Shown one piece after another: positions 2-7,085 of a DNA stretch of 64,000 nucleotides. Location of the stretch: contig JAQJDB010000007.1 of the NCBI GenBank assembly GCA_032139905.1, positions 1,116,001 through 1,180,000 on the forward strand, written 5' to 3'. The notes below the pieces were generated by a model. That model searched no databases and was not told the DNA's origin. It saw only the letters and a program-made list of their open reading frames with translations. Origin of the DNA: Nitrospira sp. MA-1. Lineage in GTDB: Bacteria > Nitrospirota > Nitrospiria > Nitrospirales > UBA8639. Each line of letters starts with the position of its first letter. Position 1 is the first letter of the stretch. Both the position numbers and the translations under genes were made by a program.

Positions 2-595
2 GAGTTTCCCTTTCCGGTCATTGTCAAATCCATTAGTGAGGAAGCATCCCTCGGTATTTCTCAAGCGTCTATCGTCCATGACGAGGACAAATTAAAAGAA
101 CGTGTTGAATTTGTGCATCAGAGTGTGGGCACGAGTGTCATTGTCGAGCGGTATATTGAAGGACGGGAATTATACGTGGGTGTGTTAGGGAATCGACGTT
201 TGCAAGCCCTGCCGGTCTGGGAACTTCACCTGAAAAATCTTCCTCCTGATGCTCTGCCGATTGCGACTGCCAGAGTGAAATGGAGCACGAAATATCAAAA
301 AAAATATGGGATTCAATCGGGTGAGGTCGAGGGATTAAGTCTTAAGTTGGTGCGTCATATTCAACAAACGGCCAAACGGGTTTTTCATATTTTGGGCTTA
401 AACGGCTATGCACGAATGGATTTTCGGTTAGACCCTCAGGAACATCTCTATATTCTGGAAGCCAATCCCAATGCCCAACTAGCCTATGGTGAAGATCTCG
501 CCGAGTCGGCTGAACGAGCCGGTATTTCCTATGAAGCGCTGATTCAACGCATACTGAATATCGGGCTAAGTTGGAAACCCGAAAGCCAGCGGTAA
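2..595 (+). CDS. ATP-grasp ligase, C-terminal part (5' end outside window)
   Basis: The frame is open from base 2, so the gene begins before the window; the GTG at 113 is internal. About 197 residues are visible. The opening segment FPVIVKSISEEASLGIS is the nucleotide-binding lysine/loop region of ATP-grasp enzymes, as in D-alanine-D-alanine ligase (FPVIVKP...GSSIGI). Further on, ARMDFRLD and ILEANPNAQL match the metal-binding strand and the E-x-N-x-N signature. The family makes an acyl phosphate and then couples it to an amine. The substrate cannot be told from this fragment. It could be a Ddl-type ligase or one of the D-Ala-D-Ala-ligase-like RimK/carboxylate-amine ligases. It ends at TAA at 595. 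Confidence 0.85.
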   Translation, partial: EFPFPVIVKSISEEASLGISQASIVHDEDKLKERVEFVHQSVGTSVIVERYIEGRELYVGVLGNRRLQALPVWELHLKNLPPDALPIATARVKWSTKYQKKYGIQSGEVEGLSLKLVRHIQQTAKRVFHILGLNGYARMDFRLDPQEHLYILEANPNAQLAYGEDLAESAERAGISYEALIQRILNIGLSWKPESQR

Positions 596-1477: not shown

Positions 1478-1531
1478 GGTCATGAGTTCTTTAATCCTGC
1501 TTGCCAAGTGGCAAGGGCCAACAAGGGAAAG
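1478..1531 (-). repeat. Native copy of the cyclase 3'-end repeat
   Basis: The partner of 797-850 in the same orientation, 681 bases away. It contains the real last 16 codons and the stop of the cyclase gene. The flanking bases on the 3' side of the gene are also partly alike (about 1462-1477 against 781-796). Confidence 0.85.
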
Positions 1532-4005
1532 TAGTGTGCGTACAAATGGTATTTCAAATAGAAAACGTTAGGGAAGCCGGTTCCTGTCATAAGTTCTTCG
1601 TCCCACCCACCCTGTTGATTCTGATGTGTAAGTAGCCATTCGATCCCCTGATGAACATTTTTTGAAGTTCGATCGCCAGCCGCTTCAAGTGCGAGTAAGC
1701 CCCAGGCTGTTTGTGAAGGTGTGCTTGATGCGGGAACAAATTCCTGCTTTTCATAGCTGGCACAGCTTTCCCCCCAACCACCATCCTGGTTTTGGATTGA
1801 GCGTACCCATGTGGCGGCACGCTGGATTGCGGAGTTTGCAGTTGGGGAACCACTTGCGCGAAGGCCGCGTACGGCGAGAAATGTTCCATAGGTATAATTT
1901 ACGCCCCAGCGTCCATCCCAACTCCCGTTGGCTTGTTGGTGGCCCAAAAGAAATTGGACGGCACGGGCGATTGCCGGATGTTGGTGTGTGTAATCACGCC
2001 TGCAGAGTGCCTCCAATACCCGTCCCGTAATGTCCGGGCAGCTTGGATCAAGCATGGCATTGTGGTCTGCGAAGGGGACCTTATTCAGTAAGGCCCAATT
2101 ATTATCGACATCAAAGGCAGCCCAACCTCCGTCCGAGGACTGCATCCCTAATAACCAGTTGATGGCACGCCCTTCGGCGCGAGTCTGCCGGTCAGGATCC
2201 GAGGCCTTGGCATGTTCAAGTGCCAACAGGACCATGGCGGTATCGTCGATGTCCGGGTAGAGTTCGTTCGCAAATTGGAAGGGCCATCCTCCAGGCTGTA
2301 AATCCGGACGCTTTACGGACCAATCTCCCTTGCGGCGAACCTCTTTGCTTAATAACCAGTCGGCTGCCCGCTGCATAGCCTGCGGTTCCCCAACGCCGAG
2401 TTCTCCCAATGCAAACATTGAGATGGCAGTATCCCATACCGGTGATAAGCTTGGCTGAAACTGCAGAGCACCTTCCTTTTCAAGAATGAGTCCTTCGAGT
2501 TGGCCAAGGGTTTCAATAAAGTCGGGATGGTCACGCTCATAGCCAAGAGCATCCATCGCCATGAGGGCGTACATCATCCCCGGAAAAATTGCTCCCAACC
2601 CATCCGTGAACCGCATGTGATCCAGCATCCACTTCTCTGCTTCGCGGATCGCCTTGGCGCGAATATCCTTAAATCCCCGTTTTTCCCAGATTTTTAAAAT
2701 CTTATCCACTTGATGAAACATGAGAGAAAAGGGATCTTTTTTCGGAAATCGCAGCTTCCGATTGGGCACCATTAGTTCGTCAACGGTCCAATTCCCAGGC
2801 ACTCTACGTTGTGCCCCGGACGCTTGAAGAATGGAAAGTGGGACGACGATGGCCCGACTCCACGATGAAATTTCATACAAGACATTCCCAGGGATAAGGA
2901 CGAGTTCAGGCGGCACACTGGGAGTGTACTTTCTTGGGAAAAGACCAAACATGCTTAGATTATTTTTGGTATAGCTATTGGTTGCCTGAAGCCCACCAAG
3001 GGCAAGAATACATTCACGTGCCCGCTGCATAAGTGGTTGGTCAGGATCATGGCCGCCAACCCGAAGTGCCACGTACGCACGGGTTGTTGCATTCACCTCG
3101 GCTGGGCCCTCTGAGTAGATATTCCACCCCCCATCTGAAAGTTGGCGGTCAAGGATGGTGCGTATGGCCTCCTTCACTTTGGTCTGAATCCGAGGCTCCC
3201 ACACACCGTTTTCCGGTGGATAGAGCCAGAGTAAAAGCAACACGTAGTCGGATTCCAATGTTGTGTCGGCAGTAAGATCGCCCTGCCAAAACCCTTGAGA
3301 ATATTGTTTCGCCAATAGTGAACGCGCAGAAACTTGTGTGGTTTGATATGCTTGTTGTTCAAGTTCCTCTACATTCGCTTTAAAAGAAGCAAGTTCCGCG
3401 AAGGCGTCTGTAGACTGTGTGGGTATGATACTTGCGGAAGGTTCTCTCATGAGTTCTCCTGATTGTGTTTGAGATTGGATCTCCAGAACAAGCGCAGCTC
3501 GTTGCTCGCGAGTTGGTGGGGCTAATCCCATCGCATCTCTGAACCACAACCCTTCGGTAGCAAGCCGTCCAACGAGGGAGCGGGTTGGATCAACGGTATT
3601 AGCCAAAAAAATGCTTTGCCAATTTTGGTATCGCTCTCGAATGGGATCAAGGAGATTGGGGTTGATCGCAAGAGCGGCCATGAGAATTGAGGCAATTTCG
3701 TGGCCCTGCAGGGAGCGATGGCTTATAGGATTTTCGACTATATCAGTCTCAATTGCTGGCCAGGGAAGCTCTTCATCAATGGAGCTGGAGAGAAAATTCC
3801 CAACTTGTTTCCGGTCTAAATCCTGGATGAGTAACTCTATGAGCCCTGTCAGTAACTGTTCTTTCCCCTCAAAATGATAGAGTAACCCACCCTTGCTCAG
3901 TCCAGCTTCCCGAGCGACATGCTCCAGTGTCAACGCACTGGCTCCGTCCCGTCCCAACAGGTCAATAGCGGTCTCAAGAATTAAATAACGGGTTGAAGTC
4001 AGCAT
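1480..4005 (-). CDS. TetR-type regulator fused to squalene-hopene cyclase
   Basis: One uninterrupted 841-codon frame holds two proteins. Residues 1-185 are TetR-like: an N-terminal helix-turn-helix (LTLEHVAREAGLSKGGLLYHF, about 26-46) and a helical ligand domain. Residues 186-841 are a full-length class II triterpene cyclase. The catalytic acid motif DIDD is at 585-588 and there are repeated QW motifs (near 288, 622, 690, 738 and 796, e.g. QSSDGGW, QNQDGGW). SHC folds squalene into hopene/hopanol for hopanoid membrane lipids and is a monotopic inner-membrane enzyme. The domain boundary coincides with Met186, which has its own AGGAG five bases upstream, so free cyclase (656 residues, normal family length) may also be made. 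The upstream start at 4005 has no Shine-Dalgarno. The fusion could be genuine, or could reflect a lost stop codon between two once separate genes. Confidence 0.88.
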   Translation of the reverse strand: MLTSTRYLILETAIDLLGRDGASALTLEHVAREAGLSKGGLLYHFEGKEQLLTGLIELLIQDLDRKQVGNFLSSSIDEELPWPAIETDIVENPISHRSLQGHEIASILMAALAINPNLLDPIRERYQNWQSIFLANTVDPTRSLVGRLATEGLWFRDAMGLAPPTREQRAALVLEIQSQTQSGELMREPSASIIPTQSTDAFAELASFKANVEELEQQAYQTTQVSARSLLAKQYSQGFWQGDLTADTTLESDYVLLLLWLYPPENGVWEPRIQTKVKEAIRTILDRQLSDGGWNIYSEGPAEVNATTRAYVALRVGGHDPDQPLMQRARECILALGGLQATNSYTKNNLSMFGLFPRKYTPSVPPELVLIPGNVLYEISSWSRAIVVPLSILQASGAQRRVPGNWTVDELMVPNRKLRFPKKDPFSLMFHQVDKILKIWEKRGFKDIRAKAIREAEKWMLDHMRFTDGLGAIFPGMMYALMAMDALGYERDHPDFIETLGQLEGLILEKEGALQFQPSLSPVWDTAISMFALGELGVGEPQAMQRAADWLLSKEVRRKGDWSVKRPDLQPGGWPFQFANELYPDIDDTAMVLLALEHAKASDPDRQTRAEGRAINWLLGMQSSDGGWAAFDVDNNWALLNKVPFADHNAMLDPSCPDITGRVLEALCRRDYTHQHPAIARAVQFLLGHQQANGSWDGRWGVNYTYGTFLAVRGLRASGSPTANSAIQRAATWVRSIQNQDGGWGESCASYEKQEFVPASSTPSQTAWGLLALEAAGDRTSKNVHQGIEWLLTHQNQQGGWDEELMTGTGFPNVFYLKYHLYAHYFPLLALATWQAGLKNS
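3448..3460 (-). promoter_or_regulatory. Internal ribosome binding site and ATG at the TetR/cyclase junction
   Basis: On the minus strand AGGAG (3460-3456) is followed after five bases by ATG (3450-3448), codon 186 of the fused frame. It sits exactly where the TetR domain ends and the cyclase begins. This is a textbook spacing, whereas the upstream start has none. It suggests independent initiation of the cyclase. Confidence 0.65.
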
Positions 4006-4011
4006 TGCTAT

Positions 4012-4042
4012 GTACTGTACCGTCTAGCTGGTTTAGATTCAA
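4012..4042 (-). promoter_or_regulatory. Candidate promoter with overlapping operator for the TetR-cyclase gene
   Basis: On the minus strand TTGAAT (4042-4037) and TACAGT (4019-4014) are 17 bases apart. The -10 lies about 8 bases before the ATG, so the message would be nearly leaderless, which agrees with the missing Shine-Dalgarno. GTAC-A-GTAC (4012-4020) overlaps the -10 and is symmetric, a plausible site for autoregulation by the TetR domain. Assignment is by inspection only. Confidence 0.4.
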
Positions 4043-4226: not shown

Positions 4227-4580
4227 TTAATTAAAGGCCAAAAAGCGGTCACACCCGTCGATGATATTTGAGAGAATAACCAAGCCGCAAAAAGTCACTT
4301 CTTTACCATATCCGTCGGTGGAGATGTGATGTTGTTGGCATCCATAGGCGCATACAAATAACTTCAGTCCATCCTTCGCCAACTCGGAAAACCTTCGGTC
4401 TTCTAGGTTTTTGACTCCCTCATCGATGAAATATAGATAAGTATCTACCTTATTGGCCAAGGCGGTTTTGGCGAGATGATAGACGGTTTCCGCATTGGGA
4501 TGTTCAGGTGAGGTTGAGAGCAGTAAGCCTAGCTTTTTATTTGCGAGGGTAGGATTGGCTATAATTGTGGTGGTGTCCAT
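4227..4580 (-). CDS. DsrE-family protein
   Basis: 117 residues, a normal length for the DsrE/DsrF-like fold. The N-terminal part KKLGLLLSTSPEHPNAET is the typical first strand and loop, followed by LAKTALANKVDTYLYFIDEGV (helix and second strand). The segment FVCAYGCQQH carries cysteines at the position where sulfur-carrying members hold the reactive Cys. The family includes sulfurtransferase subunits and peroxiredoxin-like proteins, but no DsrF/DsrH partners are next to it, so a role in sulfur relay is not established. It is divergent to moaC. Confidence 0.75.
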   Translation of the reverse strand: MDTTTIIANPTLANKKLGLLLSTSPEHPNAETVYHLAKTALANKVDTYLYFIDEGVKNLEDRRFSELAKDGLKLFVCAYGCQQHHISTDGYGKEVTFCGLVILSNIIDGCDRFLAFN

Positions 4581-4670
4581 GGGTGAAATCTCTGAATAAT
4601 ATGGTAGTACCGACTGTTTATAGGTGGAATGAGGTCGGGTGTCAAGGGAGAATTCAAGGGGATGTTTTGC

Positions 4671-4700
4671 TTGACGTCGTTTTTCCTCTGTCCTTATAAT
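4671..4700 (+). promoter_or_regulatory. Sigma70-type promoter for the moa genes
   Basis: TTGACG (4671-4676) and a perfect TATAAT (4695-4700) are 18 bases apart. Transcription should start near 4707, giving a leader of about 38 bases before moaC, too short for a molybdenum-cofactor riboswitch. Confidence 0.7.
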
Positions 4701-4744
4701 TTACTGATTTTCAAGAGGTTTTTTATCTGTGGTAATTTTTGAAT

Positions 4745-5248
4745 ATGGCGAATCTTACGCATTTTAATGAATCCGGTCGGGCTCGAATGGTGGATGTCAC
4801 CGACAAGCGTTCAACCGAGCGTGTAGCGGTAGCCCAAGGGAAGGTGTTTATTTTGCCGGAAACCCTTGAGAAAATTCATGAGGGTCGAATTGCGAAGGGT
4901 GATGTGCTGGCCGTAGCCCAAGTGGCCGGGGTTATGGGGGCCAAACGGACTCCCGATCTGATCCCAATGTGTCATCCTCTTCTGTTGACCGGTGTGGATG
5001 TAGATTTCAAAGAGAGTTCTCAGCCTAATTCTGATGGAAAGTACGCGATTACCATTGTCGCAACGGTGAAAACCACGGGAAACACCGGAGTGGAAATGGA
5101 AGCCATGACAGCAGTGTCCGTGGCCGCTCTGACCATTTATGATATGTGTAAGGCGGTCGATAAGGGCATGGAGTTTGGAGAAATTGCTCTTGTGTCGAAG
5201 TCAGGGGGAAAGTCTGGTACGTATGTCCGTGTTCAAAAGACAAAATAG
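4745..5248 (+). CDS. moaC: Cyclic pyranopterin monophosphate synthase accessory enzyme MoaC
   Basis: 167 residues, the family length. MoaC converts the MoaA product (3',8-cyclo-GTP) to cyclic pyranopterin monophosphate, the first stable intermediate of molybdenum cofactor synthesis. Visible signatures are [15 protein letters not shown] at the start, [12 protein letters not shown] (active-site region) and [20 protein letters not shown] with the catalytic-lysine segment [11 protein letters not shown] 4745 is chosen over the TTG two codons upstream because family members begin just before LTH. It is the first gene of the moaC-moaD-moaE-moaA operon. Confidence 0.95.
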
Positions 5249-5297
5249 CCGTGGGTGATGTCCGTTGTCTTTGTCTGGTCGTGGGAGTAGTAGAATT

Positions 5298-5576
5298 GTG
5301 AAGGTTAAATTATTCGGAATGTTAAAAACCATGATTCCTGGAGGAAAGGATTTGGAGGTCGCCATTGCCGAAGGTGGACAGGTCAGGGATCTGGTTCACT
5401 CCATTCAGGTTGAGCATCCTCAAGTTGGGGAACTACTCGATAAAAAAAAGGTATTGATATCGGTGAATCAAGAAATTGCACATTGGGACACAGTGCTTAA
5501 AGAGGCTGACGAGATAGCATTATTGCCTCCTTTTGCCGGAGGGTCCTGGGTATCATGGGCTAAGGAGAAAGGGTAA
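5298..5576 (+). CDS. moaD: Molybdopterin synthase small subunit MoaD with C-terminal extension
   Basis: 92 residues from GTG 5298 (start chosen because the beta-grasp strand KVKLFGMLK begins there). MoaD carries the thiocarboxylate sulfur to molybdopterin synthase. The family ends in Gly-Gly, which is adenylated by MoeB. Here LLPPFAGG stands at residues 75-82 but is followed by ten more residues, SWVSWAKEKG. The reading frame is clean, and a shift into either other frame does not put a stop directly after GG. As encoded, the protein would need trimming after GG to function. It is followed after 4 bases by moaE. Confidence 0.88.
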   Translation: MKVKLFGMLKTMIPGGKDLEVAIAEGGQVRDLVHSIQVEHPQVGELLDKKKVLISVNQEIAHWDTVLKEADEIALLPPFAGGSWVSWAKEKG

Positions 5577-5580
5577 TCCG

Positions 5581-6024
5581 ATGGCCGTTGATCTTGTAGA
5601 AAGCATGTTGGTTCGGGTGCAACTGGAAAATTTTTCAATTGATGAGGAATTGGATCGGGTGCGGTCTCGATCCCGTCGGATCGGTGGCATTGCGATGTTT
5701 TTGGGCACGGCCCGTGACCACTCCAAAGGCCGAGACGTGAGTTCCATGAGTTTTGATCACTACGAAGGAATGGCGCAGAAAAAACTCAAGGAAATTCGCG
5801 AACAGGCTCTTCGGGATTTTGACATAATTGAGGCCTTGGTGCTCCATCGCTATGGGCCAATTGAAATTGGTGAGAATATTGTGCTGATCATTGTGGGGGC
5901 CGAACATCGGGCCGATGCCTTCAAGGCCTGCCAATGGTGTATTGATGAACTCAAAAAAATCACTCCCATCTGGAAGATGGAAACGACGCCGGAAGGCGAG
6001 GTGTGGGTAGAGGAACATCCATAA
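5581..6024 (+). CDS. moaE: Molybdopterin synthase large subunit MoaE
   Basis: 147 residues. MoaE is the catalytic subunit that inserts two dithiolene sulfurs from MoaD thiocarboxylate into cyclic pyranopterin monophosphate. Visible motifs are IGGIAMFLGTARDHSKG near residue 37, SFDHYEGMAQKKL, and the C-terminal PIWKMETTPEGEVWVE, which contains one of the conserved active-site lysines (compare PFWK...TPEG in E. coli). The longer frame upstream overlaps the end of moaD. ATG 5581 is preferred because family similarity starts there and AAGGAG lies upstream. Confidence 0.93.
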   Translation: MAVDLVESMLVRVQLENFSIDEELDRVRSRSRRIGGIAMFLGTARDHSKGRDVSSMSFDHYEGMAQKKLKEIREQALRDFDIIEALVLHRYGPIEIGENIVLIIVGAEHRADAFKACQWCIDELKKITPIWKMETTPEGEVWVEEHP

Positions 6025-7085
6025 TGGAGGCGGGTGAAGCTGTGGCTCTGCCGGATGCGGTTAGAGATAGCTTGGGGCGTCCGTTGCGATCCTTGCGGGT
6101 ATCCGTGACCGATCGATGCAACTTACGGTGTCAGTACTGTATGCCCGAGGAAAATTATGTGTGGCTTCCTCGAGAAAACCTGTTGACGTTTGAAGAAATC
6201 GCCTTGCTCACGAATTTGTTTTCCGATCAGGGAATTGATCGAGTGCGTATTACCGGGGGGGAGCCCCTATTACGCAATAATGTGGCGGAACTCATTAGAA
6301 TGCTTCGTCAAAACTCTCGCATCCAGGATATTGCGATGACCACCAATGGGGTGTTGTTGAGTGAACAGGCTCAGGCTCTTTTCGATGCAGGGCTCCATCG
6401 GGTCACAGTGAGTCTGGATACGTTGAAGCCAGAGCGGTTTAAGGCGTTAACTCGACGCGATACGTTGGATCGTGTTTTTGAGGGAATTGCCTCGGTGGGG
6501 CGAGTCGGATTTACAGGATTAAAGTTGGATACGGTCGCGATGAAAGGGTACAACGAAGATGAAGTTCTGCCCTTGATGGAATACGGCAAGCAGGTCAACG
6601 GAGAAGTCCGTTTTATCGAATATATGGACGTTGGCGGAGCCAATGACTGGTCAGCGGATAAGGTTCTTTCCCGGAAAGAGATTTTAAAGATGGTCGGAGA
6701 TCATTATGGGAAGGTTGAACCGGTGGAGGAGGTTAGCTCGGCTCCTGCACAGCGATTTCGGCTGCCTGACGGCACGACATTTGGTATTATTTCTTCCACC
6801 ACAGTACCTTTCTGTTCGACCTGTGACAGGAGTCGGTTAACGGCTGATGGGATGTGGTATTTATGCTTGTATGCCAAAACAGGTCTTGACCTTCGCAAGC
6901 TTCTTCGGATGGAACGACCACGAGAAGATATTCTTTCCATCATTCAGTCTGTCTGGGAATCTCGAAAAGATCGTGGGGCGGAAGAACGAAAAGAGCTTGA
7001 ACAGGTCAGCGGTCGTGGCCGGTACATTGACATTGAGCGGTTGCGCCAGGATCCACATCTGGAAATGCATGCAAGGGGTGGTTGA
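6024..7085 (+). CDS. moaA: GTP 3',8-cyclase MoaA
   Basis: 353 residues; a radical-SAM enzyme that starts molybdenum cofactor synthesis from GTP. The N-terminal cluster motif C-x3-C-x2-C is at residues 32, 36 and 39 (CNLRCQYC). The second cluster uses C264, C267 and C281 (CSTCDRSRLTADGMWYLC). The protein ends in MHARGG, matching the conserved C-terminal Gly-Gly that approaches the active site. The start at ATG 6024 overlaps the moaE stop as TAATG, supporting translational coupling; a GTG at 6003 would add seven residues. Confidence 0.95.
   Translation: MEAGEAVALPDAVRDSLGRPLRSLRVSVTDRCNLRCQYCMPEENYVWLPRENLLTFEEIALLTNLFSDQGIDRVRITGGEPLLRNNVAELIRMLRQNSRIQDIAMTTNGVLLSEQAQALFDAGLHRVTVSLDTLKPERFKALTRRDTLDRVFEGIASVGRVGFTGLKLDTVAMKGYNEDEVLPLMEYGKQVNGEVRFIEYMDVGGANDWSADKVLSRKEILKMVGDHYGKVEPVEEVSSAPAQRFRLPDGTTFGIISSTTVPFCSTCDRSRLTADGMWYLCLYAKTGLDLRKLLRMERPREDILSIIQSVWESRKDRGAEERKELEQVSGRGRYIDIERLRQDPHLEMHARGG

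What the first reader, a model, noticed from the sequence alone, without database searches (positions are those of the whole stretch)
1480..4005. TetR regulator and squalene-hopene cyclase in one reading frame
A DNA-binding regulator joined to a membrane-associated lipid cyclase is unexpected. Both parts look complete (185 and 656 residues), and the cyclase keeps DIDD and its QW motifs. The junction has a good AGGAG and ATG, while the upstream start has no Shine-Dalgarno and a promoter placed for a leaderless message. Either a dual product is made, with a membrane-tethered repressor that could sense squalene or hopanoids, or a stop codon was lost recently.
Basis: partly seen in the sequence, partly recalled or inferred. 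Interest (0 to 1): 0.72.

Follow-up and report, generated by a model that had tools for sequence, protein, structure and literature searches.

The report
Self-repressing TetR–squalene-hopene cyclase fusion
In a lineage of nitrite-oxidising bacteria (Nitrospirales), the enzyme that makes hopanoids (bacterial sterol-like lipids) carries its own DNA-binding repressor as a front domain, sits behind a conserved site that this repressor probably binds, and in most species seems also to be made as the free enzyme from an internal start.

Summary
The fusion is real. One open frame (minus strand, 1480-4005, 841 aa) holds a complete TetR repressor (TetR_N + TetR_C_28) and a complete squalene-hopene cyclase with its catalytic DIDD motif. 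It is not a recent stop loss: all 16 carrier genomes of two Nitrospirales genera have it, with no stop or frameshift, at three chromosomal locations and as a single origin. Both halves are under strong purifying selection (dN/dS about 0.05-0.12). Upstream DNA has diverged except for one dyad (CTAWACC-N3-CTAG-N3-GGTAYAG) lying between the -35 and -10, 6-8 nt before the ATG in 13 of 16. Its only strong match in each carrier is this promoter. This points to a leaderless, self-repressed gene. The AGGAG-ATG at codon 186 is kept in 13 of 16 genomes and lies in the most synonymously constrained stretch of the gene, so a second product (free cyclase) is likely there. Three genomes lack it, so their cyclase is made as the fusion. 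In Cupriavidus the same TetR subfamily overlaps shc by ATGA as a two-gene operon behind a similar site: the probable unfused counterpart. Best model: an autoregulatory 'trigger enzyme' for hopanoid synthesis. DNA binding, ligand and membrane switching are inferred, not shown.

The parts
1480..4005 (-). TetR–squalene-hopene cyclase fusion gene, 841 aa
3850..3981 (-). TetR_N helix-turn-helix (residues 9-52)
   Evidence: HTH residues 1-57 dN/dS about 0.055; nearest solved relative CgmR, 2yve
3472..3702 (-). TetR_C_28 ligand-binding/dimerisation domain (residues 102-178)
   Evidence: dN/dS about 0.115; the only TetR_C_28 match in the genome
3456..3460 (-). internal Shine-Dalgarno AGGAG
   Evidence: kept (AGGAG, AAGGAG or AAGGA) in 13 of 16 genomes; GGA183 is the only synonymously invariant glycine codon of 49
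3448..3450 (-). internal ATG (Met186), probable start of free 656-aa cyclase
   Evidence: present in 13 of 16, absent in G048, G041 and G040
3340..3471 (-). variable linker (residues 179-222), always open and in frame, indels of whole codons only
   Evidence: dN/dS 0.25-0.30; alignment
1501..3354 (-). squalene-hopene cyclase domain (residues 218-835)
   Evidence: model aligns to 1sqc with TM 0.93 on the target length
2242..2253 (-). catalytic DIDD (residues 585-588)
   Evidence: aligned to the DXDD of AaSHC
4015..4036 (-). probable autoregulatory operator, dyad CTAAACCAGCTAGACGGTACAG centred on CTAG at 4024-4027
   Evidence: mean 1.47 bits per base against 0.31 in flanking DNA; only strong site per carrier genome
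4037..4042 (-). -35 element TTGAAT
4014..4019 (-). -10 element TACAGT, 8 nt before the ATG (leaderless)

Best explanation
The gene encodes an autoregulatory enzyme. Its N-terminal TetR_C_28-type repressor is covalently joined to a catalytically complete squalene-hopene cyclase. The repressor half, most likely as a dimer, binds the dyad between the -35 and -10 of its own leaderless promoter and keeps cyclase expression low. A ligand in the TetR pocket, or occupancy or membrane docking of the cyclase half, releases it when more cyclase is needed. In most species ribosomes also start at an internal SD-ATG (codon 186) and make free cyclase, so one message gives a repressor-cyclase and a plain cyclase. 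In the G048/G041/G040 clade only the fusion can be made. Shown by sequence: the fusion, its conservation, selection on both halves, the conserved dyad/promoter, and the internal start with its constraint. Inferred: DNA binding by this TetR, repression as its sign, cyclase activity, and two products. Speculative: the inducing signal and membrane involvement.
For: In-frame fusion in 16 genomes of two genera with no stop, also seen in the named genome collection (largely the same assemblies). The TetR half occurs only fused in 236 genomes of the order, otherwise as distant relatives (about 31% over the whole domain). dN/dS: HTH 0.055, TetR_C 0.115, cyclase 0.05, linker 0.25-0.30. The upstream dyad is conserved in otherwise diverged DNA and is the only 0-1 mismatch site per carrier searched; three non-carriers checked have none even at 3 mismatches and a fourth has one weak site. 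No SD before Met1, and the -10 lies 6-8 nt from the ATG in 13 of 16. The window at codons 176-195 has the lowest synonymous divergence of all windows (0.221; mean 0.409, sd 0.056), and GGA183 is the only synonymously invariant glycine codon of 49. The unit sits at three genomic locations without a constant neighbour, which fits a self-contained unit. Cupriavidus has a TetR_C_28 gene overlapping shc by ATGA, with a similar site at the same distance from the ATG.
Against: No binding, expression or activity data exist. The dyad overlaps promoter elements, so part of its conservation is promoter conservation, although the left arm lies in the spacer, which a promoter alone does not constrain. Main-clade operators are imperfect dyads. 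AlphaFold confidence is low for the TetR C-terminal domain and linker (pLDDT about 25-50), so the arrangement of the halves is unknown. Several same-genus genomes, one of them 100% complete (G042), lack the gene, so it is not essential. Repression rather than activation is assumed from TetR biology and from the site overlapping the promoter.
Confidence: 0.72

Rival explanations
1. Recent stop loss, frameshift or assembly error fused two ordinary neighbouring genes; no function in the fusion.
For: Fusions of adjacent genes do arise this way; Cupriavidus keeps the two genes separate but overlapping.
Against: 16 genomes in two genera, complete genomes among them, no stop, indels in whole codons, purifying selection in the linker, and three genomes that lack the internal start.
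Confidence: 0.02
2. Two proteins by design: the internal start makes nearly all the cyclase, and the full-length product is just a TetR repressor dragging an inert cyclase tail.
For: Conserved SD-ATG and synonymous constraint around it in 13 of 16; the leaderless first start is probably weak.
Against: Three genomes have no usable internal start, so there the fusion must be the enzyme. A stop before codon 186 would be an easy way to drop the tail and never occurs.
Confidence: 0.2
3. The TetR half no longer regulates; it is a dimerisation or anchoring domain, and the upstream block is only a strong promoter.
For: TetR C-terminal domains dimerise; part of the conserved block is -35/-10.
Against: The HTH is the most constrained part of the TetR half (dN/dS 0.055); the spacer dyad is invariant at ACC, C and GACGGTA although spacers are normally free; it appears with the gene at all three locations.
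Confidence: 0.06

Closest known systems
Proline utilization A (PutA) of enterobacteria
   Same: One polypeptide that is both a metabolic enzyme and the repressor of its own operon (PMC6978683); membrane-associated when substrate is present (own knowledge).
   Different: PutA uses a ribbon-helix-helix domain and a flavoenzyme; here a TetR domain and a triterpene cyclase. No homology, and the switch is untested.
CgmR (C. glutamicum, TetR_C_28 family; PDB 2yve, 2yvh)
   Same: Closest solved relative of the repressor half (E 7e-11); C. glutamicum is one of two control genomes with the same Pfam C-terminal family.
   Different: Stand-alone multidrug-responsive repressor; no enzyme attached.
Squalene-hopene cyclase of Alicyclobacillus acidocaldarius (1sqc, 2sqc)
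   Same: Same fold (TM 0.93 on target), 38% identity in the structural alignment, DXDD and aromatic pocket residues kept.
   Different: No N-terminal regulatory domain.
TetR_C_28–shc overlapping gene pair of Cupriavidus metallidurans CH34 and Cupriavidus sp. EM10
   Same: Same TetR subfamily (33% identity), directly upstream of shc, similar promoter/operator layout 8 nt before the ATG.
   Different: Two genes overlapping by ATGA, not fused; the cyclase is a more distant type (about 36% over the joined match).
Stand-alone SHC of the same Nitrospirales genomes (G000:C6:100967-102808)
   Same: About 45% identity, same catalytic motifs; present beside the fusion in most carriers.
   Different: No TetR domain; the fused cyclase forms its own long branch.

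Membership tests
TetR-family regulators (TetR_C_28 / CgmR-like) | TetR_N HTH plus family C-terminal domain above curated cut-offs | tested here: met
   TetR_N 45.3 bits (cut-off 24), TetR_C_28 66.1 (26.4)
TetR-family regulators (TetR_C_28 / CgmR-like) | Palindromic operator at own promoter | tested here: met
   Conserved dyad over -35/-10 in all 16 carriers, only strong site in each carrier genome searched; by sequence only
TetR-family regulators (TetR_C_28 / CgmR-like) | DNA binding released by ligand | not testable with these tools
   Needs EMSA or reporter assays
Squalene-hopene cyclase (TIGR01507) | Score above equivalog cut-off, full length, DXDD | tested here: met
   607.5 bits, cut-off 431.1, positions 16-634 of 640; DIDD 585-588
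Squalene-hopene cyclase (TIGR01507) | Makes hopene from squalene; monotopic membrane protein | not testable with these tools
   Active-site residues conserved; activity and membrane binding not assayed
Trigger enzyme / autoregulatory enzyme (PutA-like in action) | Enzyme and DNA-binding repressor of its own gene in one polypeptide | tested here: inconclusive
   Architecture and operator met; repression not tested
Trigger enzyme / autoregulatory enzyme (PutA-like in action) | Substrate- or membrane-dependent switch between the two roles | not testable with these tools
   No data
Leaderless mRNA | Transcription start at or next to the start codon, no SD | tested here: inconclusive
   -10 ends 6-8 nt before ATG in 13 of 16 (21-29 nt in the other three; in L016 a repeated -10-like TACAGT restores about 8 nt), no SD; transcript start not mapped

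The most novel reading that the evidence does not exclude
A membrane-docking switch: when squalene is plentiful the cyclase half docks on the membrane and pulls the tethered TetR half off its operator; when squalene is scarce the protein stays on DNA and shuts its own gene. The internal start tunes the ratio of switch to free enzyme. This would be a PutA-like circuit, evolved independently, for a triterpenoid lipid pathway.
Probability: 0.25. Interest if true: 0.85.

Novelty: new variant of a known kind. Interest (0 to 1): 0.62.

Why it matters
Little seems to be known about how bacteria sense hopanoid or squalene levels; no report of a TetR–cyclase fusion turned up in the searched literature. 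Here the sensor candidate, its probable target site and the enzyme are in one gene, so the question is directly testable with one protein, one promoter fragment and a few lipids. It also gives a documented evolutionary pair: an ATGA-overlapping operon (Cupriavidus) and an in-frame fusion that apparently keeps an internal start.

Tried and rejected
Recent stop loss or assembly artefact: rejected by 16 genomes. Wider regulon: the dyad has no second site with 0-1 mismatches in the carrier genomes searched; the weaker hits occur about as often as for the reversed control pattern. Fusion in other phyla: none beyond the known carriers in 396 Nitrospirota genomes (best two candidates scored per genome, listing capped), none among the best matches in 246 genomes drawn around a Planctomycetota genome, none in the plasmid collection; the joined plasmid matches examined proved to be adjacent genes. 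Functional divergence of the catalytic centre: Lys at the AaSHC H451 position looked odd but is usual in stand-alone Nitrospirales cyclases. Structure of the TetR half: weak model, only generic TetR-family matches. The CgmR operator sequence could not be found in the open literature. Gene polarity (internal start gained or lost) could not be settled: the fused-gene tree groups the clade without it with genus g9, at low support (0.645) in the cyclase tree, and the root is uncertain.

Full report
Observation. The minus-strand frame 1480-4005 codes 841 residues without a stop. It carries TetR_N (9-52), TetR_C_28 (102-178) and the two squalene-hopene cyclase domains (226-835), all above Pfam cut-offs, and passes the hopene-cyclase equivalog cut-off.

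Not recent. The window lies in a 4.76-Mb genome (99.98% complete) of a Nitrospirales family. All 49 genomes of the family have a cyclase-like match, but the fusion is in 16: 13 of the genus and 3 of another genus, at 70-96% identity to the window's. No copy has a stop or frameshift; linker indels are whole codons. The named genome collection shows the same fusion in records such as Nitrospirales NPIRA01-04 and NPIRA06 (largely the same assemblies as). The fused cyclase is one clade on a long branch, clearly apart from the stand-alone cyclase (about 45%) that most of these genomes also carry. The closest unfused cyclases found are about 48% identical. The TetR half is not found alone in 236 genomes of the order except as distant relatives (about 31% over the whole domain).

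Selection. dN/dS is about 0.055 for the HTH, 0.115 for the TetR C-terminal domain, 0.05 for the cyclase and 0.25-0.30 for the linker. Both halves are therefore maintained.

Promoter and operator. Around the start the DNA has diverged between species except for one block: TTGAAA/TTGATA-like -35, a spacer reading mostly CTAWACCNNCYRGACGG, then TAYAGT, then 6-8 nt to the ATG in 13 of 16. Mean information in the block is 1.47 bits per base against 0.31 upstream. The best dyad centre over all sequences falls on CTAG; two species (L014, L015) have nearly perfect arms around it. Searching 14 genomes with up to 3 mismatches finds each carrier's 0-1 mismatch sites only at this promoter (the reverse-strand reading of the same dyad included), while three of four non-carriers have no site at all and the fourth one weak site. 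One 2-mismatch site in G000 (C7:287402) and one in G038 were not followed up. In L004, L005 and L016 the -10 region is partly duplicated and the first -10 lies 21-29 nt from the ATG. This layout, an operator inside a leaderless promoter, fits a repressor that controls its own gene. No properly spaced SD precedes Met1 in any copy.

Internal start. At codon 186 an ATG with AGGAG, AAGGAG or AAGGA is present in 13 of 16 genomes. Across 11 full-length carriers of it, GGA183, the core of that SD, is the only one of 49 invariant glycines that never changes codon. The window 176-195 has the lowest synonymous divergence in the gene (0.221 against a mean of 0.409, sd 0.056). In G048, G041 and G040 the ATG is replaced by ACA/ACG and no start with a well-placed SD lies nearby, so their cyclase must be translated as the fusion.

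Context. The gene stands at three different places: between an ATP-grasp ligase and a DsrE-like gene/moaC in the main clade, near a Rieske/HNH cluster in genus g9, and downstream of what look like lysS-lolC/E-lolD in the G048 clade (neighbour names are read from sequence, no family search). It keeps no constant partner, so operator plus fusion looks like a self-contained unit.

Unfused counterpart. In Cupriavidus metallidurans CH34 (chromid) a TetR_C_28 gene (L085:3941-4540) overlaps shc (4537-6522) by ATGA; Cupriavidus sp. EM10 has the same TetR at 79%, ending in the same ATGA, with a cyclase frame downstream. The TetRs are 33% identical to the window's. The Cupriavidus promoter reads TTGMAA-ACAATCCGKCCGGATGG-TATCTT-8 nt-ATG (M = A or C, K = G or T). 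Its spacer scores against the Nitrospirales operator matrix better than all but 24 and 11 of 20,000 shuffles for the two species, suggestive of a shared operator. Whether this pairing is ancestral or a second, convergent pairing of the same TetR subfamily with shc is open, since the two cyclases are not close.

Structure. The AlphaFold model (mean pLDDT 77) matches A. acidocaldarius SHC with TM 0.93 over the target. The HTH is confident; the TetR C-terminal half and the linker are not, so geometry is open. The DXDD and pocket residues align with AaSHC.

Verdict. The architecture, its conservation and the conserved regulatory site are shown. Autorepression is likely, two products are likely in most carriers, and substrate or membrane sensing is a hypothesis. 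The nearest analogy in action is PutA (enzyme plus repressor of its own operon, PMC6978683). I found no report of a TetR–SHC fusion in the searched literature. The study of cultured marine Nitrospirales mentions shc and hpnH but no TetR regulator (PMC10579370).

Noticed in passing
L093:16-3450 (+), from G011:C22; similar 986-1223 aa frames in about ten genomes of genus g2: Squalene epoxidase-like FAD monooxygenase fused to an oxidosqualene-cyclase-like domain (PF08491 SE 3e-23; TIGR03463 732 bits, below its 851 cut-off) in a Nitrospirota family: a possible one-gene start of a bacterial sterol-like pathway.
   Followed up: partly
L094:817-4011 (-), from G724:C22, reached as a relative of a Planctomycetota genome: Squalene-hopene cyclase fused to adenosyl-hopene transferase HpnH (TIGR03470 378 bits, cut-off 225), two consecutive hopanoid steps in one 1064-aa frame.
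   Followed up: partly
L085:3941-6522 and L092 (Cupriavidus chromids): TetR_C_28 gene directly upstream of shc, overlapping it by ATGA in CH34, with a conserved operator-like promoter; a regulated shc unit outside Nitrospirota.
   Followed up: yes
L004, L005, L016 upstream of the fusion start: The -10/half-operator is partly duplicated, giving a second half-site just before the ATG.
   Followed up: no
window 1480-4005, fusion gene codons 61-80 and 736-755: Two further troughs of synonymous divergence (0.26-0.31 against a mean of 0.41), unexplained.
   Followed up: no
G000:C6:92000-111000 (L080): The stand-alone SHC lies upstream of what look from sequence like Mla-type lipid transport genes, dxs and ispG (read from sequence, no family search).
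   Followed up: no
G007:C7:66777-68765: Stand-alone cyclase matched in two separate pieces within one 757-aa frame; possibly an insertion in the cyclase.
   Followed up: no
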